From: Opitutus sp. GAS368
Lineage (GTDB): Bacteria > Verrucomicrobiota > Verrucomicrobiia > Opitutales > Opitutaceae
Length of the DNA stretch: 64,000 bases
Direction of reading: 5' to 3'
Assembly (NCBI RefSeq): GCF_900104925.1
Contig: NZ_LT629735.1
Location: 2,897,001-2,961,000 of the forward strand
Part shown: piece after piece, positions 15,136-45,366 of the stretch
How the letters are laid out: each line of letters begins with the position of its first letter
Position numbering within the stretch: the stretch's first letter is position 1
Translations under genes and position numbers: made by a program
The notes under the pieces: generated by a model
The model's database searches: none
What the model was told of the DNA's origin: nothing
Seen by the model: the letters and a program-made list of their open reading frames with translations, nothing else

Positions 15136-16632
15136 ATGGGAAAACCTACAGGCTTCATCGAGTACCTCCGCGAACTGCCCGTCGACCGCACGCCGGCCGA
15201 GCGCATCGGCGACTGGAAGGAATTCCACCACCACATGGACGAGAAGAAGCTTCGCACGCAGGGCGCGCGCTGCATGGACTGCGGCATTCCCTTCTGCCAC
15301 ACCGGCAAGCTCATCAGCGGCATGGCGTCCGGCTGCCCGGTCAACAACCTGATCCCGGAGTGGAACGACCTGGTCTACCGCGGCCTCTGGCACGAGGCGC
15401 TCGACCGCCTGCACAAGACCAACAACTTCCCGGAGTTCACCGGCCGCGTCTGCCCGGCGCCCTGCGAGGGCTCGTGTGTGCTGGGCATCAACGCCCCGCC
15501 GGTCACCATCAAGAACATCGAGGCCTCCATCATCGACAAGGGCTGGGAGGAAGGCTGGGTCGTCCCCGAGGCGCCCCAGGTCCGCACGGGCAAGAAGGTC
15601 GCCGTCATCGGCTCCGGCCCCGCCGGCCTGTCCGCCGCCGCGCAGCTCAACCGCGCCGGCCACACCGTCACCGTCTTCGAGCGCGCCGACCGCCCCGGCG
15701 GCCTGCTCATGTATGGCATTCCCAACATGAAGCTCGACAAGCAGGAGGTCGTCCTCCGCCGCATCAGGCTCATGGAGGCGGAGGGCATCCGGTTCATCTG
15801 CAACGCCAGCGTCGGCACGGGCGACAAGGACAACGTCGAGCCCCAGATCTTCCTGAAGGAATACGACGCCACCGTCATCTGCACCGGCGCCACGCAGCCG
15901 CGCGACCTGCCCATCGAGGGCCGCAGCCTGAAGGGCGTGCACTTCGCCATGGAGTTCCTCACCGCCAACACCAAGGCCGTGCTCAACGGCGGGGCGGAGC
16001 ACGCGCTCATCAGCGCGAAGGACAAGGACGTCGTCGTCATCGGCGGCGGCGACACCGGCACGGACTGCGTCGGCACGTCGATGCGGCACGGCTGCCGGAG
16101 CCTCCTGCAGATCGAGATTCTCCCCAAGCCGCCGCTGGACCGCGCGGGCGACAATCCCTGGCCCGAGTGGCCCAAGGTCTACAAGCTCGACTACGGCCAG
16201 GAGGAGGCCGCCGCGAAGTTCGGCGCCGACCCCCGCATCTACGTCACGACGGTGAAGAAGTTCATCGGCGACGAGCAGGGCAACGTGAAGGAGCTGGTGA
16301 CGGTCGAGATCAAGTGGGGCAAGAACGACAAGGGCCAGTTCGTGCCGCAGGAAGTCCCCGGCACCGAGAAGACCCGTCCCGCGCAACTCGTCCTCCTCGC
16401 CATGGGCTTCCTCGGACCCGAACAGCCCCTGCTCAAGGAACTCAACCTCGAGACCGACCCCCGCAGCAACATCAAGGCCGAGCACGAGAAGTATACCACT
16501 TCGTTGAAGGGTATATTTGCAGCGGGAGATTGTCGCAGAGGTCAGTCGTTGGTTGTATGGGCGATTAACGAAGGACGTGGGGCTGCTCGCGAATGCGACA
16601 GGTATTTGATGGGTTCTACGGATCTTCCGTAA
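15136..16632 (+). CDS. gltD: glutamate synthase small subunit
   Basis: The 498-residue NADPH-dependent beta subunit supplies electrons to GltB. N-terminal cysteines for the 4Fe-4S clusters appear as [16 protein letters not shown] and CPAPCEGSC. The FAD site is [15 protein letters not shown] (about residue 157) and the NADPH site [11 protein letters not shown] (about 298). The C-terminal FAD motif is [17 protein letters not shown]. From about 16492 to the stop, codon use shifts abruptly to A/T-ending codons while the protein stays intact, as if the last 47 codons came from another allele. Three further copies of the last codons follow. Confidence 0.97.
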
Positions 16633-16667
16633 CCCTCAGGTTTCAGGTCTCAGGTTTCTGCCTTGGC

Positions 16668-16709
16668 GAGTGTGACAGGTATCTAATGGGCAGCACCGAC
16701 CTGCCGTAA
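16668..16709 (+). pseudogene. gltD 3'-end copy 1
   Basis: Fourteen codons reading [13 protein letters not shown] and stop, identical in protein to the end of gltD but with synonymous differences in nine of 14 codons (for example GAG TGT, CTA, AGC ACC GAC CTG). Confidence 0.85.
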
Positions 16710-16754
16710 GTTACCTGACTTGCCTCGCCATAGCTCGCAGAGCGACGGCGGGTG

Positions 16755-16775
16755 GGCTCGACAGACCTGCCTTAA
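16755..16775 (+). pseudogene. gltD 3'-end copy 2, short
   Basis: Seven codons reading GSTDLP and stop (GGC TCG ACA GAC CTG CCT TAA). It is too short to be sure alone, but lies in register between two clear copies. Confidence 0.55.
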
Positions 16776-16812
16776 TCTGTCCTCGGTTCTCTGTTTTCCG
16801 TCCTCCGTAATC

Positions 16813-16866
16813 GGCGCCGCCCGCGAGTGTGATCGTTACTTAATGGGTAGCACCGACCTTCCGTAA
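16813..16866 (+). pseudogene. gltD 3'-end copy 3
   Basis: Eighteen codons reading [17 protein letters not shown] and stop, identical in protein to the functional C-terminus but with many synonymous changes (GCC GCC, GAG TGT GAT CGT TAC TTA). Confidence 0.85.
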
Positions 16867-16930
16867 CTCGCTTGCCGCGCCGTAGTGCTAGAACGTAGGC
16901 GGGTCAGGTTTCCGGCTGCGTTCACCCAAG

Positions 16931-19243
16931 TCAGCGGGCTTCTGTTGGGATCCTGTAGGGCAGGTGTAAGGATGCTGTATAGCACCTGTAAGGATCCAGT
17001 AAGGCAGAGGCGGGAGCTGCACTCCCGGCCTGAAGCAGGGTTATAATTCTTAACGCATCCTCCGGAGTAAGGCTGCCGTCTTTCTCCCCGTCGCTAATCT
17101 TGCCAAGTAAGTCCACTGACTTGTCTAGTAATTCAATTTTCCGTTCGATGCCCTGATCTTTAAAAAAGCGCACACGCTCCCAAATCGCTTCAAAACACTT
17201 GCGCATCGCATCAATCACTCGCCCATCACCTTTTATTGAAATCACAAGAGGTGAGCCGGAATCTACAAATGCTATTTTGACTAGGTTTTCGTCTAGTTTG
17301 TAGAGGCGTGCAATCTGCACGTAGAATTCTTTAATATCCGGAAGAACTGCGGAGATTTCCGCCTTGGTGAAGGTGACTGACGCTTCCGTCTCAAGTGAAG
17401 CAGACGGCTGCCAAATCGTGCGCAGTTCCAGGCTATCCGACTCAATCCGGTCCAAATTCGTCAACTGCCTCGTGAAAATATCCGGAGTAGCACTGACCGT
17501 GGCGAGCGCCGCGATCGGATTGAGCCGCGAGCTATGAGAAACCGTCGCACTGAATTGATATTTCTCCGCTACTTTATACTCCACGCCGGTCTGCCACACC
17601 GTCGCGGTTTCTGTCCTCAAAAGTGAGTTGGGATTGGTCACCGTCGCATGGTCAGCTTGCTGAAAGAAGCGCTCACCAAAAGTGGGTTCTCGAAAACCGT
17701 TTTGCACCTGCCCACGAAAAGTGAGACGGCTCGTTGGATTCCAAGAAGCCCCCAAAGTAGGGGTTAGCCGGTCAGAGCTGGGGGTAACTGATGGATTATG
17801 GCTGGAGCCCGGATGGCTCAGATGGTTGTCGTACTCCCAGGGAACGTCCAAACGGACGCCACCGAGCACGTGCAACGATTCGAAAATTTCAGAATCACTC
17901 AGCCCGAACAATCCCGCGCGCGCCCGTTTTCCCGTTCCGAAGGTGTGCTGGGCCAGCGGAAAATAGTTTTGCTCGCCGCTAAACTCGTTTGCGACCGCAT
18001 CCACCCCCACCACGACCCGGGAATTCCCGGCCGGCCGCCAAGCACCAATAAGGGCACCACCCACGGTGGTGGATTCGTCGTTCACGACCTGTAAAAGCGG
18101 GACTTCTGTGGTGCGCGAAGAATCGATCGCACTGATTTCATACCCACGACTGGTCCACTGCACGAAGCCCGAGGCCTGCCAGGAAAACTGTGGCACCTTC
18201 GCAGAACTGAGGACGACCGACAGGGTGTTGCGGTCAGTATTGCCGGACTGCAACGCAGTCCCCTCATTCCACTCTTCATGAAAGGAGCGCCAGGTGATAC
18301 TCAATTCACGATCTTGTCCCGCAGGCTGACGCCAACGGTTCTGGACCAGGTGGCCCTTCTGCCAGGCCTGCTGGTCGACCGGTCCACGTTGGGCAGACAC
18401 AAGTGAGGATGGCTCCTGTTCATCAAAGTAGTGGGCCAGGAGCTGCCAGTTGCCTGATGCCGTGGGTTCGTTGGCGAGAACTGTAGCGCTCATCGAACCA
18501 TAAGAAGCCAGATCGATTTGAACGGCACCATTTCGCTCGATCAGTTGCTTGGTAAGCTTGGGTTTGATTGGTCCTCCACCAATCGTCTCGGTCGGCACCG
18601 TCTTTGGCCTCCCGACCGCAGGTTCCGTGAAGAATTGCACTACTCCTCCTTCGGCCCAGTTGCCCCAGGCGCTCGCGCCCGACCCGGAGACTGTTTCCAC
18701 CCGTCCAATGCCCAGCGGCGGAATTTCCCTTGGGTTAATCGACCCGGTGAAGGGATCCCTCAGGGGAATCCCATCGAACAGCGCAAGATAGGGGGCAGTT
18801 GGCGCCGCAACCTGAATCGATGACCAAGGGTCGCGATTAAGCGCGGTAAGTTTAATGTCCCTGTCTTGTGCCGGGCTGCCCGGGAGCACTTCTGCCCTGG
18901 CGGGAATAAAGGCAATCCGCTGAGGCACCCGGATTGCTGATATGAGGAAGGGGCGGGAAGTATTGGGCCACCCGTAATCCATTCGCAGGTTAAAAAAAAG
19001 CCGGAAGCGCAGTTTCTCCAGATCACTGATCCGCGGTTCGGGCGGCCGATATCCCGTCACCACCATGGGTCGCATCAGCATCGGGTTCGAATCATCTGGG
19101 TTTTTTACCGCTGGAACTGAAGCCGGATCGCCGGCATACACGCTTGCGGTCAAAGCCAGGAATAAAATGCCGCGAGCTGATGAAAGAGACCTGGGAACTG
19201 CGCGTAAGGCACTCACTGGAGAATAGTGATATACTACGACCAA
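16931..19243 (-). CDS. truncated TonB-dependent receptor fused to an unrelated C-terminal domain
   Basis: The 770-residue ORF starts with a signal peptide (GILFLALTASVYAGD). It then has a plug-like domain (about 60-215; FDGIPLRDPFTGSINPRE, then IGRVETVSGSGASAWGNWAEGG) and many beta-barrel strands up to about residue 630. After TFTKAEISAVLPD the sequence changes to a soluble, charged helical domain (YVQIARLYKLDENLVKIAF, then RKCFEAIWERVRFFKDQG and SLTPEDALRIITLLQ), ending in repeat-derived sequence. Barrel closure and the usual C-terminal Phe are missing. This is probably a recombinant remnant at the left of the accessory island. I do not recognise the fused domain. Confidence 0.65.
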   Translation of the reverse strand: MVVVYHYSPVSALRAVPRSLSSARGILFLALTASVYAGDPASVPAVKNPDDSNPMLMRPMVVTGYRPPEPRISDLEKLRFRLFFNLRMDYGWPNTSRPFLISAIRVPQRIAFIPARAEVLPGSPAQDRDIKLTALNRDPWSSIQVAAPTAPYLALFDGIPLRDPFTGSINPREIPPLGIGRVETVSGSGASAWGNWAEGGVVQFFTEPAVGRPKTVPTETIGGGPIKPKLTKQLIERNGAVQIDLASYGSMSATVLANEPTASGNWQLLAHYFDEQEPSSLVSAQRGPVDQQAWQKGHLVQNRWRQPAGQDRELSITWRSFHEEWNEGTALQSGNTDRNTLSVVLSSAKVPQFSWQASGFVQWTSRGYEISAIDSSRTTEVPLLQVVNDESTTVGGALIGAWRPAGNSRVVVGVDAVANEFSGEQNYFPLAQHTFGTGKRARAGLFGLSDSEIFESLHVLGGVRLDVPWEYDNHLSHPGSSHNPSVTPSSDRLTPTLGASWNPTSRLTFRGQVQNGFREPTFGERFFQQADHATVTNPNSLLRTETATVWQTGVEYKVAEKYQFSATVSHSSRLNPIAALATVSATPDIFTRQLTNLDRIESDSLELRTIWQPSASLETEASVTFTKAEISAVLPDIKEFYVQIARLYKLDENLVKIAFVDSGSPLVISIKGDGRVIDAMRKCFEAIWERVRFFKDQGIERKIELLDKSVDLLGKISDGEKDGSLTPEDALRIITLLQAGSAAPASALLDPYRCYTASLHLPYRIPTEAR

Positions 19244-19471
19244 GTGAGTTATTTCTTAGGCTTGGAGAATAAGCGCAGTGGGTCGGTCACTTTGCATGGG
19301 TCGGAGCCAGGCGTAGATTTTGATGAGCAAGCTGGCGGTGTTGCAGATCACCAGCAGGGTCGCGCCGACGAGGATCCCGAGGAAGATGCGTCCACCGGAG
19401 CGGGGCGGGGTGATAGATGACTACCAGGGACGCAAGCTCAGCGCGTTCTTCGGGTCGGGTTCTGCGTTTGA
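19244..19471 (-). other. possible fragment of a one-helix membrane protein
   Basis: On the minus strand from about 19426 to 19261, an open frame without a start codon (a TAG precedes it) encodes SGGRIFLGILVGATLLVIC followed by LLIKIYAWLRPMQ. This is a transmembrane-like piece and may be a gene remnant. Confidence 0.3.
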
Positions 19472-19873
19472 CTAGCGATTGAAGAGGCCGGTCTTAACCG
19501 TCACAGGCGATTCGCTCATCGAGAATTTTTTAACGACCCCCTTATCATCAAAGAGAATGACAAGTTGCTTTTTCGTCCCACTAGCAGAGCCGCCAAAAAG
19601 ACCGACCAGAGGAACGTAGTTGATGGCATCGGCCGACATTTTGGCCAATTCATAATTCCATATCTCCAAGCCACCATCCGTGAACGACGTGGTAAATGGC
19701 GAGCCATACGCCAGTTTGACCTCAGCTTTGGTGGTCTTCCCTTCAACGATCTTTTGTTGGATGCTCGACTCGGATTCTTTGCGGAGACTTTCGTTGCCGC
19801 TGCTTGCGCATCCAGTGAGCAAGATCAGAAGCAAGGAGACAATTAGGCGCGACAATACAGTGGTTTTTTTCAT
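19472..19873 (-). CDS. lipoprotein with SmpA/OmlA (BamE)-like domain
   Basis: The 133-residue protein has a lipobox (LLLILLTGC, Cys22) and the SmpA/OmlA signature: a helix pair (SSIQQKIVEGKTTKAEVKLAYGSP) followed by strands (GLEIWNYEL, then KKQLVILFDDKGVVKKFSM). Stand-alone members of this family are common small outer-membrane lipoproteins. A BamE role is not implied. It lies in an AT-richer accessory stretch. Confidence 0.72.
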   Translation of the reverse strand: MKKTTVLSRLIVSLLLILLTGCASSGNESLRKESESSIQQKIVEGKTTKAEVKLAYGSPFTTSFTDGGLEIWNYELAKMSADAINYVPLVGLFGGSASGTKKQLVILFDDKGVVKKFSMSESPVTVKTGLFNR

Positions 19874-20110
19874 GATTATACAGGAGGTTATGCGGAGCCC
19901 TTTGCAGTGCTACGCATGCGTGGAGAGCAGTTCCTGTAACCTCAACGAGGCAAGGCGCGGCCAGACACAGCACGTTATAACAGCGATGCATTCTTCCCGT
20001 CTGGCCCGACGAGGATGCAAGCAATGACAGTTATTGCTGCGGCGGCAATCCCGGACTATATCGTGCCGACTGCGCCGTCGCTCAGTCCTCCCGAGGCGGT
20101 CACGATATCA
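19874..20110. other. intergenic region with the first 63-bp direct repeat
   Basis: Contains the repeat at 19987-20049. No gene is seen. Confidence 0.45.
19987..20049. repeat. 63-bp direct repeat, copy A
   Basis: Includes cccgtctggcccgacgagg and gcaagcaatgacagttattg. It recurs at 21194-21256 with about three mismatches, flanking a three-gene unit. Weaker relatives lie near 22774 and 49339. Confidence 0.75.
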
Positions 20111-20398
20111 TCATCGCTCCAAGACTTCGGGCGTGGGCTCTTTCGCCTTGATGACCGGGACTTCTTTCAAGACCACCGTGCCAGTCTTCTCAACACCTTG
20201 GACCGTGATCTTGATGGGTTTTCCCTCCAGGATATCTGCCTCCGTAAAGACATAAGCGGGCCGCTTGTTCCGGCCCTTCGACACCTGGCCAATTGTTTTG
20301 GCCAGCTCGCTTGAATACTGCGCCGCGTCATAGGATCCCGATGACGCGATCTGCTTCAGGAGCTGGTTCAAGCCTGGGGGATTGGTCATGTCACTCAT
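20111..20398 (-). CDS. hypothetical protein, third gene of a small operon
   Basis: A 95-residue soluble protein. The N-terminus is helical (NQLLKQIASSGSYDAAQYSSELAKTIGQ, read in parts), followed by a beta-rich half (YVFTEADILEGKPIKITVQG, then TGTVVLKEVPVIKAKEPTPE). Its start overlaps the end of the membrane protein gene upstream by 8 bp. No family is recognised. The tight operon of tiny genes suggests a phage or plasmid origin. Confidence 0.55.
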   Translation of the reverse strand: MSDMTNPPGLNQLLKQIASSGSYDAAQYSSELAKTIGQVSKGRNKRPAYVFTEADILEGKPIKITVQGVEKTGTVVLKEVPVIKAKEPTPEVLER

Positions 20399-20807
20399 GG
20401 GGCTCTCCGGTTTGATTGTCAGTGATTGCCTTGATTGTCTTGATCAGATTGTCGCGGGTTATCTTGTCGGCGTTCTTCTCCGCGATTGAAGCCAGAATCT
20501 GCCCGCCCGCAAGTCCGACCGTGATGGCGCCAACCAGCTCGCCGAGCTTGAACGAAAGCGGCCGGGTGGGATCGGGGTTCAGGATATCGTAGGAGGCGAG
20601 GGGGCCATACAGGCCCCAGGTGACGAGCGCGGCCACGCTGCCGACGATGATGTGGGCATACCAGCCGGGGCGCCAGACGGTGCCGTCGGGGTCGGTGCTC
20701 GGCTTCTTGAAACCGTCGGCCAGGAAGCATTTCACAAGCCCGCCCACGGCGCCGAAGAGTCCTACCAGGATGGCAATGGCCCAGATGATATCAGTTGAGG
20801 TTTTCAT
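20391..20807 (-). CDS. small membrane protein, second gene of a small operon
   Basis: The 138-residue protein has three hydrophobic segments (DIIWAIAILVGLFGAVGGLV, HIIVGSVAALVTWGLYG, ELVGAITVGLAGGQILASI) and a charged C-terminus. It could be holin-like, but nothing specific confirms this. It starts 6 bp after the stop of the 56-residue gene upstream and overlaps the next gene by 8 bp. Confidence 0.6.
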   Translation of the reverse strand: MKTSTDIIWAIAILVGLFGAVGGLVKCFLADGFKKPSTDPDGTVWRPGWYAHIIVGSVAALVTWGLYGPLASYDILNPDPTRPLSFKLGELVGAITVGLAGGQILASIAEKNADKITRDNLIKTIKAITDNQTGEPHE

Positions 20808-20813
20808 GGGTGG

Positions 20814-20984
20814 CTAGGCGTCTCTGATGATGGCGGCGATTTTCTCGGTGAAGCCCTTCAGCATGCCCTGGACGATGGGGTCGTTGAAGGTAGCGGGCGT
20901 GGCGGGGGCTTTGACGGCGGCGTAAATCGCGGCGTATTCATTGACCGCGGCGATGATGGCAGTGGATTTTTCGGCAGTAGTCAT
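20814..20984 (-). CDS. 56-residue hypothetical protein, first gene of a small operon
   Basis: An ATG at 20984 opens a short ORF beginning MTTAEKSTAIIAAVNEYAAI and ending EKIAAIIRDA. It is Ala-rich and probably helical. The spacing of 6 bp to the next gene and the shared direction argue that it is real. Function is unknown. Confidence 0.5.
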   Translation of the reverse strand: MTTAEKSTAIIAAVNEYAAIYAAVKAPATPATFNDPIVQGMLKGFTEKIAAIIRDA

Positions 20985-21399
20985 GGGCTGGATGGGTTAG
21001 TGAGGGAACGTGGGGCTGGCCTTAAATATTTCAGTCGGTCGACAGAGCTAAGTGCGGCAGGATTGCAGAAATCTGAAAGCTGAGCCCTGAAACCTGAGGG
21101 AATAGCGCCCAAGGCATTGGGACCAAAATAGGGCAGGTCGAAGCAGCAGAAGCCTCCACGAGGCCAAGCGTCGCCAGATTGAAAATGCGGGTGTGCATTC
21201 CTCCCGTCTGGCCCGACGAGGATGCAAGCAATGACAGTTATTGCTGCTGCGGCAATGCTACATTGCAGAGACCTGACGGAGCGCGGGAAGCGCGAAGATG
21301 GCGTCGTGAAGCGAAGCGCAACAGCCCGATAGGGTGGTTGCTGCCGGGAGCGCTTCGGGCGGCAGCAGCCACAAACCTGAAGTCGAACCCACTCCGGAT
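20985..21399. other. intergenic region with the second 63-bp direct repeat
   Basis: No gene is seen. Degenerate tracts such as gaaagctgagccctgaaacc (near 21070) precede the repeat at 21194-21256. Confidence 0.45.
21194..21256. repeat. 63-bp direct repeat, copy B
   Basis: Direct repeat of 19987-20049. With copy A it brackets the three small minus-strand genes at 20111-20984. Confidence 0.75.
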
Positions 21400-21653
21400 T
21401 AGGGTGTGTCTTCCAACCTCCGAAAAGGACCACTAATGGGATTTCACCAATGCTGAAATCCACCGAAACCGCTCCGGCTGATCGCCTGCGCGGTGGGTTT
21501 CGGGGGCCCGCTAATCGCGGGCAGAGAGGGCGGCGATCAGCCGCCCCCTGAACCTGTCGGCGGAGGCGATCAGCCGGAGCAGTGAAAGGAGATTACGCCG
21601 TTGGCGGAATCCTTTTAGTGGGCCCCTTTCCGGGCTTTGAAAACACTCCCTGG
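21400..21653. repeat. 255-bp MITE-like element, copy 2
   Basis: Reverse-orientation copy of 197-451 with the same ends (gggtgtgtcttcc at left, gaaaacactccctgg at right) and near-identical interior, including gctccggctgatcgcct twice. No ORF. Confidence 0.72.
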
Positions 21654-21702
21654 TGGTTAAGCTGATTGCGCTTCGCGCCTTTGCGGCTTGGCGTGAGAAA
21701 AA

Positions 21703-22005
21703 TCAGCTTTCGTGTCGGGATATCCAGTAGAGCGGATGTCGTTTGCTGTGGCTGATCGACAGAATCTCCAGCTCCTCGCGGGGAATCTTCTCCCAATAGT
21801 AGAAGGCGTAAGGGAAGCGGCGGAGCAGGCCGCGCCGCACGTTGGCTTGGATTACCCGCCATTGCGCGGGGAATTGAACAAGCGCTCCGAAAGCATTCTC
21901 CGCCTCGTTCAGGAACGCAGCACCGAGCCCGGGTCGGATCGACTCGTAATATTGCGCGGCGGCGATCAGTTCGATTTCAGCTTCCCGCCGCAGGATGATT
22001 CTCAT
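21703..22005 (-). CDS. ParE/RelE superfamily toxin
   Basis: The 100-residue protein has the ParE layout: N-terminal helices (LRREAEIELIAAAQYYESIRPGLGAAFLNE, read in parts) and a C-terminal strand pair (GLLRRFPYAFYYWEKIP, then EELEILSISHSKRHP). Its start lies inside the 3' end of the upstream antitoxin gene (29-bp overlap). It is probably a gyrase- or ribosome-directed toxin kept with its antitoxin on an accessory island. Confidence 0.78.
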   Translation of the reverse strand: MRIILRREAEIELIAAAQYYESIRPGLGAAFLNEAENAFGALVQFPAQWRVIQANVRRGLLRRFPYAFYYWEKIPREELEILSISHSKRHPLYWISRHES

Positions 22006-22213
22006 GGGCTTTGGCCAGCTTGGCCCGCCCTGAGGCTAACGCCTCCTGATACGGTCGGCTGGTTCCTTGGCCCGAAAGTGACTCCTGCTGGCGCTGGAGA
22101 GCGACCTGCAGCGCGGGATCTTCCCGCTCGATTTGCAGCATGAAGGCTGACACCTCGGCGTAGCCCTCCGGCGGCAGACCCTTGATCTCGGCGATGATCT
22201 CAGCGGCTTTCAT
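21977..22213 (-). CDS. putative antitoxin partner
   Basis: A 78-residue protein from the ATG at 22213 (MKAAEIIAEIKGLPPEGYAE), preferred to 22249 because antitoxins of this type start at this helix. The C-terminus is basic (SGRAKLAKAHENHPAAGS). It overlaps the toxin gene. The antitoxin role is inferred from pairing. Confidence 0.62.
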   Translation of the reverse strand: MKAAEIIAEIKGLPPEGYAEVSAFMLQIEREDPALQVALQRQQESLSGQGTSRPYQEALASGRAKLAKAHENHPAAGS

Positions 22214-22300
22214 CGAGGGCGAAGTTTGTCCATCTTGGCAGAAACGCAAACCCGTTGTCAGCGCGATCGGCTGCAGCAGGGTCTGGTTTGCGTGTGAAAT

Positions 22301-22606
22301 TCATCGGACGACAGCCGGGCCCTGCTTCATGAAGGCGGCCAGGGTCACCGCCGAGAGCGGGTGGCCTTTCTTCCGCGCGATGGCGGTGTAGCGCTTCTTC
22401 AGCGCGGGGTCGGCGAGCACCTTGCGGTGGAACGCCCCGGCCTGCCGGAAACGCTCCCGGTGCGCGCGCTGGGCCGGCGTGGGCTTGATCCGGTCCATCC
22501 GCGGGAACCGGGTGACCACGAGCCCGTAGGAATACTGCTTGAAGACGATCCCGTCCACGTTGCCGCGCAGGTGTTTCAGGGCGGAGTTGAGTTCGGCTTT
22601 GGCCAT
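22301..22606 (-). CDS. conserved hypothetical protein
   Basis: A 101-residue basic protein. The segment GIVFKQYSYGLVVTRFPRMD followed by IKPTPAQRAHRERFRQA and a helical ALKKRYTAIARKKG resembles small proteins seen in Bacteroidetes and Verrucomicrobia accessory regions. No function is known to me. No signal peptide or membrane segment is present. Confidence 0.5.
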   Translation of the reverse strand: MAKAELNSALKHLRGNVDGIVFKQYSYGLVVTRFPRMDRIKPTPAQRAHRERFRQAGAFHRKVLADPALKKRYTAIARKKGHPLSAVTLAAFMKQGPAVVR

Positions 22607-23060
22607 AGGTTGGTTCGGGGAAGGTTCGTGTTACCTTCGTGTTACCTTCTTACATCCTTACACCATCCCTACACCTTCCCCTCACCGTCCCGTCACCTGA
22701 TAACAGGCGGGATACAAGGAGGGTAATTGCGCGGTGCCGGGGGCGGCAGGGGGCCGGAGAATCAGGGTGCGGATGCATCTTTCCCGCCTGGCCCGACGAG
22801 ACCGCTGACAATGCGGATGATTGCCCGGAGGGCAACACCGTATTCTCAGAGGACACGCCGTTGTTCCCTGCTGGGAACCCGGTGCTTGTCCTGAAACCTG
22901 CGTCCACCGGCGCAGTTTCAGGCAAGGAGGACAGAGGACGGAGGACGGTCATAACCGCATTAGTGTCCATTAGTGTCGATTAGTGGTTAACCGTTTGAGT
23001 TCGATTTCATCGACCCAACTGCCAGCTTGCCGAAATCATCCTCCGGACTAGCCTGCCTTC
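22607..23060. other. intergenic region with short degenerate repeats
   Basis: No gene is seen. It contains pyrimidine-rich ttaccttcgtgttaccttc and tacaccatccctacacc tracts (22630-22690), a relative of the 63-bp repeat near 22774-22800, a gaggacagaggacgg tract (22929-22945) and attagtgtccattagtgtcg (22960-22979). Confidence 0.45.
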
Positions 23061-23276
23061 ATGAGCAAAGCGGAGATTCTCGCGCAGCTGCCCAAGTTGT
23101 CCCCGCAGGAGCGCGGGGAGATTCTCGCGCAGCTCTGGCGGATGGAAGAAGCTTCCGGTCCGACTCCGCGGGAGAAGGCCTTGCTCGACGAAGCCCAGGC
23201 CAGTTACGACGCCAATCCCGGGACGGTCACCCCTTGGTCGGAAGTCGAGGCCCGGTTGCGTCGTCCGCCGCCTTGA
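23061..23276 (+). CDS. addiction-module antitoxin component
   Basis: The 71-residue protein begins MSKAEILAQLPKLSPQERGE, a pattern typical of the addiction-module component found upstream of RelE/ParE toxins. The C-terminal part reads NPGTVTPWSEVEARLR. Its TGA overlaps a TTG start of the following toxin (TTGA). Confidence 0.75.
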   Translation: MSKAEILAQLPKLSPQERGEILAQLWRMEEASGPTPREKALLDEAQASYDANPGTVTPWSEVEARLRRPPP

Positions 23277-23572
23277 ACCGATTGGTGCTGGTCCGTCCGG
23301 CCGCCGAGGCGGATCTGGCGGCAGCCCGCGACTGGTATGAGCAACGACGGGCAGGGCTGGGGTTGGAGTTTTTGGACGAGACGGCTCGCGCGTTGCATGA
23401 ATTGAAGCAAGAACCGGAACGGCCACGCCTGTATTACCGCAATTTTCGTCGCGTCTTTCTCCGTCGGTTCCCCTACAAGATATTCTATCAGGTCATCGGT
23501 TTGCGCATCGTGGTCTTCCGCGTGCTGCATGCGAAACAAGACCACAACCAAGGCCTCGACCATCCGTGTTAA
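23273..23572 (+). CDS. ParE/RelE superfamily toxin
   Basis: The 99-residue protein starts at TTG (23273), overlapping the antitoxin stop by 4 bp. The upstream open frame has no similarity to the family. The pattern AAEADLAAARDWYEQRRAGLG, then NFRRVFLRRFPYKIFYQV and IVVFRVLHAKQDH is characteristic of ParE-like toxins. Confidence 0.8.
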   Translation: MNRLVLVRPAAEADLAAARDWYEQRRAGLGLEFLDETARALHELKQEPERPRLYYRNFRRVFLRRFPYKIFYQVIGLRIVVFRVLHAKQDHNQGLDHPC

Positions 23573-23937
23573 TCAGTGAAATCCGTGGTTATACCAAACA
23601 CCCAAAGCTTTTACACGAAGGCCGCAAAGAACGCAGAGATATTTCCCCTCGCAGGATCTGCTTCGCGGTCTTGGCGACCTTGGTGTAGAGTGTAGCAGCT
23701 TGAGGCGATTGGTGTTAATCAGTGAAATGTGGCCGTCATCGCCCGAGGGGCGCCCATTCCGCCCACCCCTGCGCTTATCGCTCCGGGGCCAGCACGTTCC
23801 GTGCAGACCATCTCGCGCTGCTCGCGCTTCGTCCGTGGTTAAGACGCCTTCTTCTCTGTGACCTCTGCGTCCTCGATGTGAGACCTCCTCGGACTGAATT
23901 TAACGCGCCGTTGCGGTGCGTGAGGCCCTGCATCAAC
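23573..23937. other. intergenic region with family A repeat
   Basis: Holds the repeat at 23583-23715 and ttaatcagtgaaatccgtgg-type tracts. From 23716 to 23937 no gene is recognised. Confidence 0.45.
23583..23715 (+). repeat. dispersed palindromic repeat (family A), full copy
   Basis: Begins taccaaacacccaaagc and ends gcttgaggcgattggtg. Nearly identical to 9297-9425. Confidence 0.78.
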
Positions 23938-24138
23938 TCAGGCGCCAAACGGCGTTGCCGTGCTTTTCTTTTTTTTCTGCCGTATCTCGGTCAATTGCGT
24001 CAAAAGCGTGTCCTTCACCTGCAATTCTTCCGTGGTTATCGACCCTTTCTTTTTCTTAAAAATCGCAAGCCACTCATTCAAGTGGGCGATGATCAGATCG
24101 TAGTCGGCTGGGGATAGTAGCTGGGCGGGGTGTTTCAT
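23938..24138 (-). CDS. 66-residue hypothetical protein, paralog 1
   Basis: A short helical, lysine-rich protein (LLSPADYDLIIAHLNEWLAI, then KGSITTEELQVKDTLLTQL and KKKKSTATPFGA). A clear paralog lies at 25570-25770, and about 100 bp on both sides of the ORF is also similar, so the whole segment is duplicated. Function is unknown. Confidence 0.6.
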   Translation of the reverse strand: MKHPAQLLSPADYDLIIAHLNEWLAIFKKKKGSITTEELQVKDTLLTQLTEIRQKKKKSTATPFGA

Positions 24139-24559
24139 CGGAGGAGGGTATCATTGGGGGATCGTTACCATACTGGTTACGTATGAAGGGAACATGGGGT
24201 TCATACCTACCCTGCAACAGACCCATTTGGGCTGGCGAGATGGGCGGCCCCGGTTCGCTGGCAACCAGGGGGGCAGGGCAGGTAGTGCGGCGGCGGCAAT
24301 GCGGCATGGCCGAAGCCCAATCCATTTAACACCGAGGTCACGAGGACACAGAGATTTAAACCCTGCCTGCTTTCCCATCCGTGTTATACCAAACACCCAG
24401 AGCTTTTACACGAAGGCCGCAAAGAACGCAGAGATATTTCCCATGGCAGGATCTGCTTCGCGGTCTTGGCGACCTTGGTGCAGCTACGACGTGTTCTGAC
24501 GTGGGGAACGCACCCGAATATAAAAAGACGAGGTCCGCTGCGATCAAGCCGCCCGGCGC
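24139..24559. other. intergenic region with a truncated family A repeat
   Basis: Upstream of paralog 1, the sequence gaacatggggttcatacctacc (24188 on) recurs near 25820 upstream of paralog 2. A family A copy follows at 24384-24482. No gene is seen. Confidence 0.45.
24384..24482 (+). repeat. dispersed palindromic repeat (family A), truncated copy
   Basis: Starts gttataccaaacacccagagc and stops after cttggtgcag, lacking the last 30 bp or so of the full unit. Confidence 0.72.
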
Positions 24560-24877
24560 TCACTTCCCCGCCGCAATCGCCTGACCGACTTCGCGCGGTT
24601 TGGCTCCGGTGGCCAGCATGGCACGGACCAGCAGGTCAAACGATACGTTGGATTCGCCCGCTTCGAGCTTGGCCACCCGCGACTGGCTGGAGCCCAGCCG
24701 GCGGGCCAGTTCGGATTGCGAGAATCCCAGGTGGGCCCGGCGGTCGCGCACGGCGCCGGCGAGGGCCAGCCGCATGTTGACCAGGGTCGCTTCTTCCGGA
24801 CTCAGCTTCAGGAGTTCCGCGGCGGAGCCGACGCGGAAGCCGGCTTTCTCCAGACGATGTTTCTTTTCGGCTTTCAT
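24560..24877 (-). CDS. XRE-family antitoxin (HigA-like)
   Basis: The 105-residue protein carries a helix-turn-helix (LGFSQSELARRLGSSQSRVAKLEAGE, read in parts) in its central part, typical of HigA-type antitoxins that repress their own operon. It follows the toxin gene by 11 bp, the toxin-first order characteristic of higBA. Confidence 0.82.
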   Translation of the reverse strand: MKAEKKHRLEKAGFRVGSAAELLKLSPEEATLVNMRLALAGAVRDRRAHLGFSQSELARRLGSSQSRVAKLEAGESNVSFDLLVRAMLATGAKPREVGQAIAAGK

Positions 24878-24888
24878 GAGGTGATCCT

Positions 24889-25224
24889 TCAGTTGATGGA
24901 CAGGTAAAGCTTGAGGCGTCGCTGACAGGCCCGGAGCACCGCAAGCGGGGTTTGTTGGGTTTGTTTTTCGTGGATTTCGAGGATTACCACCGCGTCGTCG
25001 GCGGTGTGATAGAAGATGCGCCAGTTTTTGGTTTTATCGGGGAGGCGAAGCTCATGACACCGGCGGCCAATGACGGGCATGGGCCGGGAGTGGGGGAGGC
25101 CGAGCGATTCGCCCCGCTGCAAGCGGCGGAGCAGCACGCCGGCCTCGACCCCGCGCCAGCTGGGTGAACGGCGGAGTCTTGATCTCGCCCTGCGACCAGC
25201 CAGCGGCTTGTCCACCTGCGTCAT
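24889..25224 (-). CDS. HigB-like (Gp49/RelE) toxin
   Basis: The 111-residue protein ends with the Gp49-like HigB pattern: CHELRLPDKTKNWRIFYHTA, then AVVILEIHEKQTQQTP and a terminal basic helix. These toxins cleave mRNA at the ribosome. The N-terminal 30 residues (RRARSRLRRSPSWRGVEAG) are Arg-rich, and a later start is possible. It is paired with the XRE antitoxin just downstream. Confidence 0.78.
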   Translation of the reverse strand: MTQVDKPLAGRRARSRLRRSPSWRGVEAGVLLRRLQRGESLGLPHSRPMPVIGRRCHELRLPDKTKNWRIFYHTADDAVVILEIHEKQTQQTPLAVLRACQRRLKLYLSIN

Positions 25225-25569
25225 GTCCCACGGGTATGCCCGGTATGATATATGTCAAATCTGATATGCCGCCTCGGTGCGATGTCGGGACCGGCCCCCG
25301 TTCGAACATCAAGGCCGACCTGTCCTCCGTGGCTTTACGCGAAGGAGGAGCCCGAGAAACATACGACTTCCATCAAGGGCGCCTTCGCCGCCGGCGACTG
25401 CCGCCGCGGGCCGTCACTCGTAGTGTGGGCTATGGCTGACGCGTCGTCGTCCCACAGGGTGCGATACCACATTTGCGTCTTTGCGTTGATCATTCCCCTG
25501 TCTGGAATGCGACAGGTATTGACCGGCTCGACTGACCTGCCGCGAGGCCGGCCTCGGCTACGAATCAAC
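25225..25569 (+). other. region holding a decayed gltD fragment
   Basis: No active gene. See the pseudogene at 25283-25545. Confidence 0.6.
25283..25545 (+). pseudogene. decayed gltD 3' fragment at the right edge of the island
   Basis: In shifting frames it reads NIKAD, then [20 protein letters not shown] and SLVVWA, then after about 70 unrelated bases ECDRY and (one base deleted) GSTDLP. The functional GltD has [30 protein letters not shown] and [13 protein letters not shown]. Codons are GC-rich like the body of host gltD, unlike the A/T-rich tail of the present gene. Frameshifts and an insertion show it is dead. Confidence 0.82.
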
Positions 25570-25770
25570 TCAGGCGCCAAACGGCACGGTCGTGTGGCTC
25601 TTTTTTTGCCGCCGTATCTCGCTCAATAGCGTCGAAAGGGTCTCCCTCAGCTGCAATTCTTCCGCGGTTATCGGCCCTTTGTTCTTCTGAAAAATGGCGA
25701 GGCATTTGTTCAAGCAATTGATCACCAGATCGTAATCGGCCGGGGACATTAACTGTGGGTGATGTTCCAT
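25570..25770 (-). CDS. 66-residue hypothetical protein, paralog 2
   Basis: Paralog of 23938-24138 (LMSPADYDLVINCLNKCLAI, then KGPITAEELQLRETLSTLL and a common end TPFGA/VPFGA). Length and reading frame are conserved despite many substitutions, which suggests selection on the protein. Function is unknown. Confidence 0.6.
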   Translation of the reverse strand: MEHHPQLMSPADYDLVINCLNKCLAIFQKNKGPITAEELQLRETLSTLLSEIRRQKKSHTTVPFGA

Positions 25771-26211
25771 CGGGTGGCTCGTGAAAGCAGCACCAACATA
25801 CTAATTTTTCACGAAGAGAATATGGGGCTCATACCTACCGTCCCATAGAGCAATATGGGCTGCCGAAAATGGACGGCCTCGGCCCGTCGGCCGTCAGGGA
25901 GCACAGCAGGCATTGCCGAAGCTCTATGCAATAAGCTGAAAGCTTCAGGTTTGGGTGTCCGGTTCCAGCTTATCGCTTATAATACCAATTACGATTTGCG
26001 ATGAGATGTTACACCAAGATCGCAAAGAACGCAGAGCGATTCATTCCCAAACGATTGGGTGCTTTGTGTCCTTGGCGATCTTCGTGTGAAAAAACCGATA
26101 CCGATTGGTAATTGGGACAAAAAGGCCGCCGGGATCTGCTCCTGGCGGCCCGGAAGTGTCGTTGGTAGGAGCTTATCGCTTAAAGCTTACCGCTTATCGC
26201 TATTTTCCCCC
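25771..26211. other. intergenic region with variant repeats
   Basis: No gene is seen. It contains the duplicated upstream segment of paralog 2, a variant family A palindrome (25981-26113) and cttatcgcttaaagcttacc tracts (26171-26205). Confidence 0.45.
25981..26113. repeat. variant of the family A palindrome
   Basis: Inverted ends taccaattacgatttgcg and gataccgattggtaattg. The interior has ttacaccaagatcgcaaag and gcgatcttcgtgtga arms. It is a diverged relative of family A. Confidence 0.6.
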
Positions 26212-26586
26212 TTACTTCTTTTCGTCCTTCTCGTCCTCGGCCTTTTCCTTGGCCTCGTCCCTCGCGGACTCGACCTTGACCGAGATGACGGTGCCGGTCT
26301 TCGCATTCACGGCCACCTCCGTGATGTCCTTGGTGTCGGGGGTGGCGAGGTCGAGCGACCAGATCACGCGGCCGTGCTCTTTCTCGAGCTCGGCCGACAC
26401 AACCTTGCCGCCCGGCACCTTGACCAGGGCGATGGTCCTGGCCTCGGCCTCGGTGATCTTGGCCTGCGCCAGCAGTTCGGGCGGGGGAGTGGAGTTTTTC
26501 TTGTTGTCGGGCTGTTCCGCGAACGCGTGGTTCACGAAAAGGGCGCTGCACAGCAGCAGGGCGGGGAGGAGGAGTTTTCGTTTCAT
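26212..26586 (-). CDS. PepSY-domain exported protein
   Basis: A 124-residue protein from the ATG at 26586 (MKRKLLLPALLLCSALFVNH), which gives a clean signal peptide ending AFAEQ. The PepSY domain covers about residues 35-105 (AKITEAEARTIALVKVPGGK, then VIWSLDLATPDTKDITEVAV). The C-terminus is a charged Lys/Glu/Asp tail. PepSY proteins are thought to bind or inhibit periplasmic peptidases. No partner is adjacent. Confidence 0.78.
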   Translation of the reverse strand: MKRKLLLPALLLCSALFVNHAFAEQPDNKKNSTPPPELLAQAKITEAEARTIALVKVPGGKVVSAELEKEHGRVIWSLDLATPDTKDITEVAVNAKTGTVISVKVESARDEAKEKAEDEKDEKK

Positions 26587-26920
26587 GGGATTTGAGCGTT
26601 TGGGTTGTTCGCCGGGGCGGGCCCGGGCGGTCTGGATCCGCGCCGTCATTATAGCAGATGAACATTACCGGAACCTTACCGGCAGCCGGTGACCCAAGGA
26701 TAGGGTGAATACCGGCATTCAATGCAGAAATTTAACCACGGATTACACGGATATACACGGATTGAGACTGGTTTAGCCGCAAGAATGCGCAAATGGCGCC
26801 AAAAGGAATTTGGCTCTTGGTGCCTTCTGCGATTTTTCGCGGCCAATAGTTCACCCTCCATCCGTTTTAATCCGTGTCATCCGTGGTCAAAAAACTTCTC
26901 CTGCGCGTGAGGCCCTCGCG
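26587..26920. other. intergenic region with a long palindrome
   Basis: Upstream of the PepSY gene. The main feature is the palindrome at 26731-26890. No gene is seen. Confidence 0.45.
26731..26890. repeat. palindromic ccacggattacacgg repeat
   Basis: tttaaccacggattacacgg at the left is mirrored by ccgtgtcatccgtggtcaaa at the right, with an inner hairpin around ttggctcttggtgccttctg. It may act as a bidirectional terminator after the TonB receptor gene. Confidence 0.6.
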
Positions 26921-29095
26921 CTAGAACGTGTAGCCCACGGAGCCGAAGATGCCGCGGCGCATGCCGTATTGAGGAGCGTTGACCCCGACGCCGGAGCCAT
27001 TGCGCAAGGCATACGACTTGTCCGTGAGGTTCACGACATCGAGCCGGACCTTCCAGTATTCGCTTTTGCCCACCTTGAAGCTCCGTTCCACCCCGGCGCT
27101 GATCTGGTAATAGGAGGGCACCGTGCCGCCGTTGGGAATGACCGAGCCGTCGGGCGCCGTGATGGAGGTTCTCAAGCCGCTGCCATAGGTGGAGTCCACG
27201 TAAACCAGGGTGCCATTATGATGCTCGCCCCATTGGTAGGAGGCGCCGAAGGAGCCGCTCAGGGTCTGGTCATGATCGAGATGGATCCAATGGTTCTGCA
27301 CATAGGCCAGATCGTCGGGATTGAACAGGAACTGTGACGAGATCCAGTTTTTGCCCTTGGCCACCGAGTGGGCGAGGTTCAGGTAGGTGGAGAAACCGCC
27401 GTTGGTGTAGGAACCGGTGAATTCCAGCCCATACACCTCACCCTTCTCATAATTGAAGGCGGAGAGAATCAGGGTCTGGCCGAACAGGCCGTCGTCGAGC
27501 TGGTTCTTGGCCTGCTTGTAGTAGCCGTCGAGCCCCACCTGGAACCCCTTCCCGAGCTTCTGGCTGATACCGACGTCGAAATAGTCCGCCCGCTCGGCCT
27601 TGACCGGGTCGGCCTGGTCGGAAGCCGCCGCGTTCGAGGTGTTGTCGAACGCGATCACCGTGCTGGCCGGCACGTATTCCGCCGGGGGCGGCGTGAAATA
27701 GCGCGCGTAACCGGCGTGCAGGGTCGTCGAGTCCGACGCCTTGTAGAGGAGATTGAGGCGCGGACTGAGCTGGTTTTCCTTGTCAAAGGAAGAGTTGAAG
27801 ACGTCGAAGCGCGCCCCGCCGTTCAGCGTCAGCCCGGGGGCCAGCGTCCATTCATCCTGCAGATACACGCCGGCAAACAGGGCGTGGAGCCTCTGGTTTT
27901 GCACGATCGGGAAGGCCGGGCCGGTGGCATCGCCGTTGCCGTCCACCGGGAAGACGGTCGCGGTCGCGTTGCTGGTGGCGGATTCTTCCAGCAGCATTGC
28001 GCCCGCCCGGAGGGTGTGCGAGTCGTTCAGCGCGTAGCTGGCGTCGAACTGCAGGCCGGCGGACTGGAGCTTGCGCGCCACGTCGGTGGACACCCCGTTG
28101 AAATAAAGGTCGCCGACCGGGTCCGGCGTGAAGTGCACCCGGCTGTCGCGGCCCAGGGCGGAAAGCTGGTAGTTCAGGCTGCCGGTCGATTTCTGATAGG
28201 TGACGATGCCGAAGTAATTCTGCTCATGCTGGTTCTCGTCCAGGCGGGCGGAGTCGAAGATTCCCGGCACCCACTGGGTGCCGTCCGGGGACGTGCCGGC
28301 CGCCAGTCCCGGGGTGTTGGGCACCTGGAACTTGCTGTCGGAGGCGCTCAACATGAACGTGAGGCGGCTCTGGTCGTCGAGCAGGTAGGAGAGAAAGGAA
28401 AACAGTTTGAGCTGCTTCGTCGTGTCGTGGATCGCGCTGGCGCCGGGCGTCGGATTCTCGATGCCGAGGTCGTTGCGATCATAGCTGCCGTTGACGAAGT
28501 AGCTCAGCTTCCCCTCCGAGCCGCTGGAGGAAAAGTTCGGGCGGATGGTGCCGAAACTGCCGCCGTAAAGGGAGGCGCTGCCGCCTTGGCCGACCGTGCC
28601 GCTGTTCGTATGGATGTCCACGACGCCCGCCGTGCGGAAGCCGTATTGCGCCGGCAGCGAGCCGGTGACGAACTGCAGGCTGTTCACGAAGCGCGGGTCG
28701 AGTTCCAGGCCGAAACCCGATATGCCCTCGGGGAGCAGCACGTCGTTGATGCGATATTGCAGGTTGGCGTGCTCACCCCGGACGTGGAGACCGGCGTTGC
28801 CCGACGAGTCCTGGGCCACGCCCGGCACGCGGAGCAGCACCTGGCTGAAAGGCGCGTCCGCGCCCTGCGGCATGACCTGGATCTGCTGCATGTCGATGTG
28901 GAAGGACGAGGCGCCCAGCTCGGGCACGATGCTCTCCCGGGCCTGGTCGAGCTTGCCGTTCACGATGAGCGGATCGAGCGTGAGCGTGGCACTGGCGGCC
29001 GGGTCGGGCGTGGCGGGCACGGTTTGGGCACTGGCGGCGGTTGCCGCGAGCGCCAGCAAAAAGGAAAGGGAAAGTAAGCGACTGGAAGATGACAT
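26921..29095 (-). CDS. TonB-dependent receptor of the metal-handling cluster
   Basis: The 724-residue outer-membrane receptor has a signal peptide (MSSSSRLLSLSFLLALAATA) and a plug domain at about residues 55-170 (FSQVLLRVPGVAQDSSGNAG, then LHVRGEHANLQYRINDVLLP). A 22-strand barrel follows, ending in the canonical Phe (GIFGSVGYTF). The start at 29095 gives a proper signal peptide. It is the last gene of a minus-strand cluster with a NicO-like permease, DUF3299 proteins and an ABC transporter. Zinc or another metal chelate is therefore the likely substrate, by inference from context. Confidence 0.88.
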   Translation of the reverse strand: MSSSSRLLSLSFLLALAATAASAQTVPATPDPAASATLTLDPLIVNGKLDQARESIVPELGASSFHIDMQQIQVMPQGADAPFSQVLLRVPGVAQDSSGNAGLHVRGEHANLQYRINDVLLPEGISGFGLELDPRFVNSLQFVTGSLPAQYGFRTAGVVDIHTNSGTVGQGGSASLYGGSFGTIRPNFSSSGSEGKLSYFVNGSYDRNDLGIENPTPGASAIHDTTKQLKLFSFLSYLLDDQSRLTFMLSASDSKFQVPNTPGLAAGTSPDGTQWVPGIFDSARLDENQHEQNYFGIVTYQKSTGSLNYQLSALGRDSRVHFTPDPVGDLYFNGVSTDVARKLQSAGLQFDASYALNDSHTLRAGAMLLEESATSNATATVFPVDGNGDATGPAFPIVQNQRLHALFAGVYLQDEWTLAPGLTLNGGARFDVFNSSFDKENQLSPRLNLLYKASDSTTLHAGYARYFTPPPAEYVPASTVIAFDNTSNAAASDQADPVKAERADYFDVGISQKLGKGFQVGLDGYYKQAKNQLDDGLFGQTLILSAFNYEKGEVYGLEFTGSYTNGGFSTYLNLAHSVAKGKNWISSQFLFNPDDLAYVQNHWIHLDHDQTLSGSFGASYQWGEHHNGTLVYVDSTYGSGLRTSITAPDGSVIPNGGTVPSYYQISAGVERSFKVGKSEYWKVRLDVVNLTDKSYALRNGSGVGVNAPQYGMRRGIFGSVGYTF

Positions 29096-29207
29096 GATTG
29101 AGTTAGGTTGAAATAAGGTCTGATTGCCCAGGCGCGCGGCGCCCAGGCGGGGGATCGAAAAACGCGCCCCACGGAAGGCGTGGTTCGCGGAACACGAAGG
29201 TTTCGGT

Positions 29208-29561
29208 TCAGAGCAACGGGGGCGCATGCGCCGGCGCGTGCCAGTAACGACGGCGCGTAGCCGGCAGCCAGTCGCCGGCGTGCCATAAGGTGCCGCGGTC
29301 CGGGGACCGCAGGAGCAACCGCAGGCAAAAAACCAGCAGCGCAGTTGCCCCATGGGAGAAGAGGGTTACCGCGCACTCATGATCTGCGTTCCCGACCGGT
29401 TCGTGCCCACGCCGCGTATGCTCCGACCCTTGATTCCGGCCGTGCAGCCGGGCATGCAACTCCGGGCTGGCCGCCAGCACGTTGAGCAGCACCACCAAAA
29501 GCACGGCCAAGAGCGCCATAAGGCGGCTGGGCCACAAAGGCGGGAGGTTGCGGTTGAACAT
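29208..29561 (-). CDS. small membrane protein, paralog of the protein at 35247
   Basis: The 117-residue protein has one N-terminal transmembrane helix (LMALLAVLLVVLLNVLAASP), a His-rich periplasmic loop (ELHARLHGRNQGSEHTRRGH, then ADHECAVTLFSHGA) and a second hydrophobic segment. The AASP-LHA-H...C-V-F-G pattern matches the protein at 35247-35621, so the two bracket the cluster. His and Cys residues suggest metal binding. Function is unknown. Confidence 0.65.
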   Translation of the reverse strand: MFNRNLPPLWPSRLMALLAVLLVVLLNVLAASPELHARLHGRNQGSEHTRRGHEPVGNADHECAVTLFSHGATALLVFCLRLLLRSPDRGTLWHAGDWLPATRRRYWHAPAHAPPLL

Positions 29562-29575
29562 GGCTGATGCAGCAG

Positions 29576-30553
29576 TCAGTGCGAAAAGGCGACGGTGACA
29601 ACACCAAGGAGGCAGAGCAGGCCACCGATCACCCGCTCATCCAGTCTCTCCAGCCAACGCAGGCGTTGCACGGCATGAAGGGTCAGCCAGGTAAGCGTGA
29701 GCATCCCACCCAGAGTCGCGAAGCCGAGCACCGCGCTGAGCCAGACAATGCCCGGCCAGCCGTAGGGTGCCGCCGTCAAATAGACCGGAAGAAACAGTTC
29801 ACAGGGCGACAAGGTGAGGGTCAGAAACAATCCCCAAAGCGCTGCGCGGTCCGTGGAGCCGGGCGACAGTTTTTCCGGGTGTCCCTGGCAATGATTGCAG
29901 GCGTGGCCGTGGGGGGCTCGAAACGCCAGCCAGACGCCAAGTCCGACGAGGATCAGCCCGGCGACCCAGTGAAACACCTGATCGAAGCGTTCGTTGAGCT
30001 CGAAACCAAACCACGCCAGGCCGACCCCGAGCGCAGTGGTGGCAATGACGTGTCCTCCGCCGGCCAAAGCCACGGCGGCGAGAATCCGGCGGTGCGACCA
30101 GCCGCGTGCGCGGCCGACGACCACAAAGGGCAGCCAGTGTGTCGGGATCGCGGCGTGGAGGAACGCGACGCCGAATCCGGTCACGGTAAGAGCATAGAGA
30201 AAGGTTTGGTTCATAAAATTGATCGTCGGCAGCCTGGGGAAACAGAGAACGATCACGCTCGCGGCCAGCAGGGTGATCGTCCCCAGCGCGAGGCTCCGCC
30301 TAAAGGCCCGCCTGCGTTCGTTCGCCTGCAGGGTGATGCCCGCCCGAAGCTCGTCCCGCATTTCAGGCGGGGGCCGCACCTCCTGCAGCCGCCGGGCAAT
30401 CACTTCGTCGAACTTCCGCTGCGTGGCGAACCAGGTCGCCAACTCCGGGTCGCGTTGCGCGAGGCGCACCGCCTCGGCCAGGTCCGCATCCGGCGCATCC
30501 GCCCCGTTGGGGCGGTAGGCGCAGAGCAGGAACTTGGCCTCTTGCGGGTTCAT
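29576..30553 (-). CDS. anti-sigma-like N-terminal domain fused to a NicO/UreH-like permease
   Basis: A 325-residue protein from the ATG at 30553 (MNPQEAKFLLCAYRPNG). Residues 1-80 look like the cytoplasmic domain of Verrucomicrobial anti-sigma-type proteins (ARRLQEVRPPPEMRDELRAG), followed by a membrane helix. From about residue 114 (MNQTFLYALTVTGFGVAFLH) it is a six-helix NicO/UreH-like transporter with AAIPTHWLPFVVVGRA, a His-rich loop (HGHACNHCQGHPE) and LSPCELFLPVY. The family exports or imports nickel, cobalt or related ions. There is no ribosome-binding site before the inner ATG, which supports a real fusion. Confidence 0.7.
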   Translation of the reverse strand: MNPQEAKFLLCAYRPNGADAPDADLAEAVRLAQRDPELATWFATQRKFDEVIARRLQEVRPPPEMRDELRAGITLQANERRRAFRRSLALGTITLLAASVIVLCFPRLPTINFMNQTFLYALTVTGFGVAFLHAAIPTHWLPFVVVGRARGWSHRRILAAVALAGGGHVIATTALGVGLAWFGFELNERFDQVFHWVAGLILVGLGVWLAFRAPHGHACNHCQGHPEKLSPGSTDRAALWGLFLTLTLSPCELFLPVYLTAAPYGWPGIVWLSAVLGFATLGGMLTLTWLTLHAVQRLRWLERLDERVIGGLLCLLGVVTVAFSH

Positions 30554-30622
30554 GAAAAGATAAGCGGTCGGAACCACGGGATGGGAGTTGAAGGCGGGTT
30601 GGATTATTTCAGGCCGGGGCCG

Positions 30623-31201: not shown

Positions 31202-31235
31202 CCAGGTGGCGACGGTCAGCACCGCCCTTTGCCGG

Positions 31236-31898: not shown

Positions 31899-31907
31899 GG
31901 AAGCGCC

Positions 31908-32675: not shown

Positions 32676-32676
32676 A

Positions 32677-33165: not shown

Positions 33166-33189
33166 GGTGAAGAGGGGTTGAGGATCGAC

Positions 33190-35081: not shown

Positions 35082-35246
35082 GCGCGCGGCCAGGCGCGGC
35101 TGGCACAAGCGGACGAACGGAAATTGAAAAGGGAAGAATCCATGGCTGAGCAGAGCGGTTAAACGTGCGCGACGCAGGAGCGGAGCTCCGATCGCTAACC
35201 TGCAGTCAAGGTCCGGGCCGAACCGGCCCGGACCGACGATCATGGC

Positions 35247-43898: not shown

Positions 43899-43901
43899 AC
43901 C

Positions 43902-45362: not shown

Positions 45363-45366
45363 AGTC

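What the first reader, a model, noticed from the sequence alone, without database searches (positions are those of the whole stretch)
16492..16866. gltD 3' end replaced and stacked in four versions
The last ~47 codons of gltD switch to A/T-ending codons while the protein remains normal. Just downstream are up to three more tails encoding the same [13 protein letters not shown] end with different synonymous codons. Mobile elements that integrate into the 3' end of a gene and supply a replacement end leave such tails (as known for icd and tRNA targets). This suggests repeated integration at gltD, a target I do not know as an established one.
Basis: partly seen in the sequence, partly recalled or inferred. 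Interest (0 to 1): 0.82.

Follow-up and report, generated by a model that had tools for sequence, protein, structure and literature searches.

The report
gltD gene end replaced repeatedly
In one bacterium the last tenth of a nitrogen-assimilation gene has been swapped for a differently spelled copy that makes the same protein, with remnants of four other copies lying downstream; such gene-end swaps occur elsewhere too, and what makes them pile up here is not known.

Summary
gltD (15136-16632) has third-position GC 0.95 in its body and 0.49 in its last 49 codons, with a normal protein. The ends differ by 7 to 17 nucleotides and no amino acid (0 of 20000 simulations per pair), so they come from separate working gltD alleles, not local duplication. 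Further ends occur downstream in 5 of 178 gltD loci. gltD also borders a variable island region in its genus. The integrase reading is only partly supported: no recombinase was found beside gltD, displaced ends start at different codons, and one occurs without a large island. Best explanation: repeated one-sided homologous replacement of the gene end by relatives' DNA. A gltD-specific nuclease remains possible but none was found. Closest precedent: gene ends replaced by endonuclease elements in fungal mitochondria.

The parts
15136..16632 (+). gltD, glutamate synthase small subunit, 498 aa, open
   Evidence: best relative 90% at protein level
16492..16632 (+). current recoded 3' end of gltD (46 codons and stop)
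   Evidence: GC3 0.95 to 0.49; codons -47 to -18 reach at most 72% nucleotide identity among about 150 gltD genes, the 49 codons before them 90%
16633..16667 (+). spacer 1, member of a dispersed CAGGTTTCAGG repeat family
   Evidence: 137 matches in the genome with up to 2 mismatches, overlapping ones in tandem runs counted; 0 for the reversed pattern
16668..16709 (+). displaced gltD end 2 (13 codons and stop)
   Evidence: 93% over 43 bp to the gltD end of G037
16752..16775 (+). displaced gltD end, partial (7 codons, first one GTG for ATG, and stop)
   Evidence: shares TCGACAGACCTGCCTTAA with the gltD end of G147
16776..16812 (+). spacer 3, related to other TCTGTCCTC/TCCTCCG stretches
   Evidence: 11 matches (itself included, 8 of them in one stretch, L259) in 464 kb with up to 8 mismatches, 0 for the reversed pattern
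16813..16866 (+). displaced gltD end 3 (17 codons and stop)
   Evidence: best 86% to a gltD end; the spacer behind it is also found behind gltD of G335
25298..25612 (+). decayed old gltD end (GC-rich codons, interrupted by about 70 bp) and terminator-like stretch
   Evidence: 86% over 92 bp to gltD of G037
16867..55380 (.). variable region between gltD and the sequence that follows gltD after 280 bp in G037

Best explanation
The 3' end of gltD was replaced several times by DNA of related bacteria carrying a working gltD end and some sequence behind it. On the left the incoming DNA joined by homology inside gltD, so the protein stayed and the codons changed; on the right it joined inside the old end, the rest of which stayed behind as a displaced tail. 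Shown: the replaced end, the displaced ends, their coding origin in separate alleles, and that single genes between two copies of a gene end occur at other genes too. Inferred: how the two joints formed, and that no dedicated enzyme is needed. Why gltD is hit so often is open: its extremely conserved end is a good anchor, or something breaks it.
For: Ends differ only synonymously. End 2 is nearest to sister G037, the partial end matches G147, end 3 is nearest to other Opitutaceae. Five of 178 gltD loci have a further end downstream. Displaced ends start at eight positions, seven of them different. Non-gltD cases of the same form: in L028 a tRNA_Me_trans gene has a second copy of its last 21 codons (6 of 63 nucleotides, 1 amino acid different) 611 bp downstream, behind a glutathione peroxidase gene; in L054 a SNF2 helicase has its last 61 residues again behind XisH and XisI (21 of 183 nucleotides, 5 amino acids different). 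Recoded patches with native sequence behind them in G330, and mosaics in G331 and G334, show that such ends recombine on.
Against: gltD is over-represented: 3 of 71 gltD ORFs against 2 of 906 other ORFs in one survey (Fisher P 0.003, loci not independent), and of 368 genes in 464 kb of this genome only gltD and one paralogous pair gave a match. No gltD with the codon usage of end 1 was found as donor. Three of the five gltD genes with GC3 z below -4 have no further end downstream. In L118 the end on gltD is the native one and the downstream one is nearer to other lineages.
Confidence: 0.45

Rival explanations
1. A homing-type element: an undescribed nuclease cuts the conserved [18 protein letters not shown] coding sequence of gltD, and its carriers bring a recoded, cut-proof end.
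For: Over-representation of gltD; codons AGA or AGG, TCN and TTA or TTG together at RRGQSL in 4 of 169 gltD ends, all in this genus; same signature published for mitochondrial endonuclease elements (PMC3630166, passages); XisH/XisI between two gene ends in L054.
Against: No nuclease recognised: 53 of 70 downstream ORFs, from 18 of 20 selected loci, gave no such Pfam family; the L118 ORF that looks GIY-YIG-like by eye has no Pfam or NCBIfam match, only a PDB hit at E 0.26, and no relative in 150 family genomes or viral contigs. Its genome has one PF01541 match whose place the capped list does not show. Other genes show the pattern as well.
Confidence: 0.2
2. Integrase-carrying islands integrated several times into the gltD end; integrases and most of each island were lost later.
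For: Replaced and displaced ends; variable region at gltD; L028 has an insert of about 1.8 kb with 25 identical bp at the start of both gltD ends.
Against: No recombinase beside gltD; no constant core; spacers of 35, 42 and 37 bp here, 43 in G147 and 42 in L128.
Confidence: 0.2
3. Local tandem duplication of one gltD end followed by drift.
For: The copies are close together.
Against: All differences are synonymous, including TCT against AGC serine codons; 0 of 20000 simulations per pair.
Confidence: 0.02

Closest known systems
Mobile endonuclease ORFs that replace the C-terminal end of mitochondrial genes (atp6, atp9, cox2, nad3 in Glomus; atp6 in Allomyces), PMC3630166, passages read
   Same: The gene has a foreign end of 94 to 100% protein but 64 to 81% DNA identity to the relative; the native end is displaced downstream
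   Different: There an endonuclease ORF sits between the ends; here none was recognised, the host is a bacterial chromosome, and up to five ends follow one another
Phage and island integration into protein gene ends such as icd (recalled)
   Same: Replacement end supplied, old end displaced
   Different: No integrase and no constant core found at gltD
Homology-facilitated illegitimate recombination in natural transformation (recalled)
   Same: One joint by homology, one without
   Different: Not known to me to pile up at one gene end
Tn7-like insertion behind conserved genes (recalled)
   Same: A conserved gene end marks an insertion site
   Different: Leaves the coding end unchanged

Membership tests
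Integrase-type element integrating into a gene 3' end | Replacement end with intact protein | tested here: met
Integrase-type element integrating into a gene 3' end | Tyrosine or serine recombinase within the element | tested here: not met
   downstream loci searched with profiles from six own-genome integrases only, serine recombinases by PF00239 in 21 genomes of the genus only
Integrase-type element integrating into a gene 3' end | Constant core repeated at both ends | tested here: not met
   eight displaced ends start at codons -52 to -7; L028 alone shows 25 identical bp
Endonuclease element replacing a gene end (mORF type) | Recoded end on the gene, native end displaced | tested here: inconclusive
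   fits the window (end 2 nearest to sister G037), reversed in L118
Endonuclease element replacing a gene end (mORF type) | Endonuclease ORF between the ends | tested here: inconclusive
   window: no room in the 35 to 42 bp spacers and no such family in 10 ORFs of 16.9-26.6 kb; L118 ORF unrecognised; not all ORFs of the other loci were scanned
Endonuclease element replacing a gene end (mORF type) | Cuts the native gene and spares the recoded one | not testable with these tools
   needs biochemistry
One-sided homologous replacement without dedicated enzyme | Occurs at unrelated genes as well | tested here: met
   tRNA_Me_trans gene in L028 and SNF2 helicase in L054

The most novel reading that the evidence does not exclude
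A bacterial homing system aimed at gltD exists in Opitutaceae: an undescribed nuclease cuts the conserved coding sequence, and its carriers bring a recoded, cut-proof gltD end that rescues the gene, a natural counterpart of recoded-rescue gene drives, with successive rounds leaving stacked old ends.
Probability: 0.15. Interest if true: 0.85.

Novelty: new variant of a known kind. Interest (0 to 1): 0.5.

Why it matters
A protein gene whose end was swapped several times while its protein stayed the same records repeated horizontal replacement at one site. Two searches of the held paper library for gltD as an integration or attachment site gave 0 papers each. If a dedicated driver exists, the recoded alleles of sister genomes show how a host gene escapes it; if none does, gene-end replacement by relatives' DNA is a wider and little noticed route by which single genes arrive behind conserved genes.

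Tried and rejected
Tandem duplication: rejected. Of those rows L066 (two rows) and the window pair at 31.3-32.7 kb are whole-gene paralogues, L021 looks low in complexity; the L124 row is an upstream match at the threshold and was not followed. Contig-edge gltD copies of G117, G313, G323, G371, G390 (an inverted contig end by eye) and L121 (N runs) were judged assembly matters by eye and dropped. GIY-YIG is common in the family (244 of 252 genomes, places listed only in part); the listed one about 300 bp behind gltD of G110 lies on the other strand near a tRNA-like stretch (by eye), with no second gltD end. Serine recombinases lie 16 to 31 kb upstream of gltD in G335, G037 and G334; in G335 it is near the stretch homologous to the tRNA-Pro site of the window; the other two were not resolved. 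Phage and plasmid records with a gltD-like end (10 and 42) were not opened; viral contigs gave none. Three other genes of this genome with z from -4.1 to -5.1 look ordinary on reading.

Full report
What is there. The window lies in a one-contig genome of 4.15 Mb; its nearest gltD relatives are titled Opitutaceae or Opitutus. gltD runs 15136-16632. From the Tyr codon at 16492 to the stop the codons change: GC3 falls from 0.95 to 0.49, and codons -47 to -18 reach at most 72% identity to about 150 gltD genes while the 49 codons before reach 90%. Against five genus members with ordinary ends the last 55 codons hold one amino-acid change, Val to Ile. After 35 bp comes a second end, after 42 bp a partial one, after 37 bp another, and 8.4 kb further a decayed GC-rich one.

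Origin of the ends. The three complete ends differ by 11, 15 and 7 nucleotides and the two in G147 by 17 of 63, with no amino-acid change; no run of 20000 kept the protein. They diverged while each was the working end of a gltD gene. End 2 is 93% identical over 43 bp to the gltD end of G037, and the partial end shares 18 bp with that of G147. End 3 is best 86 to 87% to gltD of other Opitutaceae loci; only the spacer behind it is shared with G335, whose coding end is no nearer. End 1 shares with G147 the spacer behind it, while their coding ends differ by 15 of 54. Spacer 1 belongs to a dispersed repeat (137 matches), spacer 3 to a less widely spread one; the spacer behind end 2 had one other match and the one behind end 3 none in 464 kb.

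How special is gltD. Of 178 distinct gltD loci with at least 150 bp downstream (150 of 183 with 3 kb or more), from several phyla, 5 have a further end on the same strand: the window, G147, G112 (L118), G031 (L128, same sequence as L012) and the Limisphaerales contig L028. In the window plus 400 kb of this genome, 368 genes, only gltD and one paralogous pair matched within 3 kb. In 977 ORFs of the window and 100 comparison loci (71 with the gltD motif) the rows were gltD in the window (two), G147 and G112, and seven others. Followed up: L066 and the window pair are paralogues, L021 looks low in complexity, but L028 (tRNA_Me_trans gene) and L054 (SNF2 helicase) are real second ends with one glutathione peroxidase gene, and with XisH and XisI, between the copies. 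So 3 of 71 against 2 of 906, Fisher P 0.003, loci not independent. This contradicts exclusive gltD targeting.

Recoding in relatives. GC3 of the last 50 codons is below z = -4 in 5 of 149 gltD genes against 1 of 1187 internal stretches. AGA or AGG, TCN and TTA or TTG occur together at RRGQSL in 4 of 169 gltD ends, all of this genus; 1 has two, 38 one, 126 none. In G330 the recoded patch is followed by mostly ordinary codons and a downstream region like that of G324; on the one matching contig of G325 (genome 82% complete) only a broken recoded end is left behind gltB.

Variable region. Homologues of the window from 57.2 kb on follow gltD after 2.0, 3.8, 14.4 and 40.6 kb in G037, G130, G093 and the window. 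The proteins scanned there include TonB receptors, toxin-antitoxin-like, sugar and transposase-like genes; PF00589 has no match there.

Mechanism. Joints at seven different positions, no recombinase found, and the same form at two other genes favour repeated one-sided replacement by relatives' DNA. The excess at gltD leaves room for a driver. L118 holds an ORF of 162 codons with one stop between gltD and the second end, but searches found nothing for it, and there the end on gltD is native (97% to L016) and the downstream one is nearer to other lineages. Published mitochondrial cases have the same signature with an endonuclease (PMC3630166; passages).

Literature. gltD, integration site, genomic island: 0 papers; glutamate synthase, gltD, attachment site, integrase: 0 papers. 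Two further searches were seen as listings only.

Noticed in passing
L028 18903-20052 of the reverse strand; L054 1-2940: Second copies of a gene end behind one inserted gene (glutathione peroxidase) and behind XisH/XisI: single-gene inserts flanked by gene ends outside gltD.
   Followed up: partly
window 7855-9159: A tyrosine recombinase gene next to tRNA-Pro upstream of gltB; in G335 a large serine recombinase lies near the homologous stretch.
   Followed up: partly
window 21401-21660: A repeat of about 250 bp, partly palindromic, with 12 other listed copies of 89 to 96% in this genome, MITE-like.
   Followed up: no
window 23589-23717: A repeat of about 125 bp, two other listed copies here, many in G332, here twice beside the 250 bp repeat.
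   Followed up: no
window 23384-25224: Toxin-antitoxin-like genes (ParE family; Gp49 family with a helix-turn-helix partner) in the variable region; a weak MazE-like antitoxin also behind the second gltD end of L118.
   Followed up: partly
window 14800-15130 and elsewhere: Short degenerate repeats (CAGGTTTCAGG, TCTGTCCTC, CCTTAGCTTCC) fill intergenic DNA.
   Followed up: partly
L212 14755-14981: In G325 gltB is followed by a broken recoded gltD end; the rest of gltD is not on that contig.
   Followed up: partly
window 16931-19243: TonB receptor ORF whose C-terminal part falls outside the matched family and may be another protein joined on.
   Followed up: no
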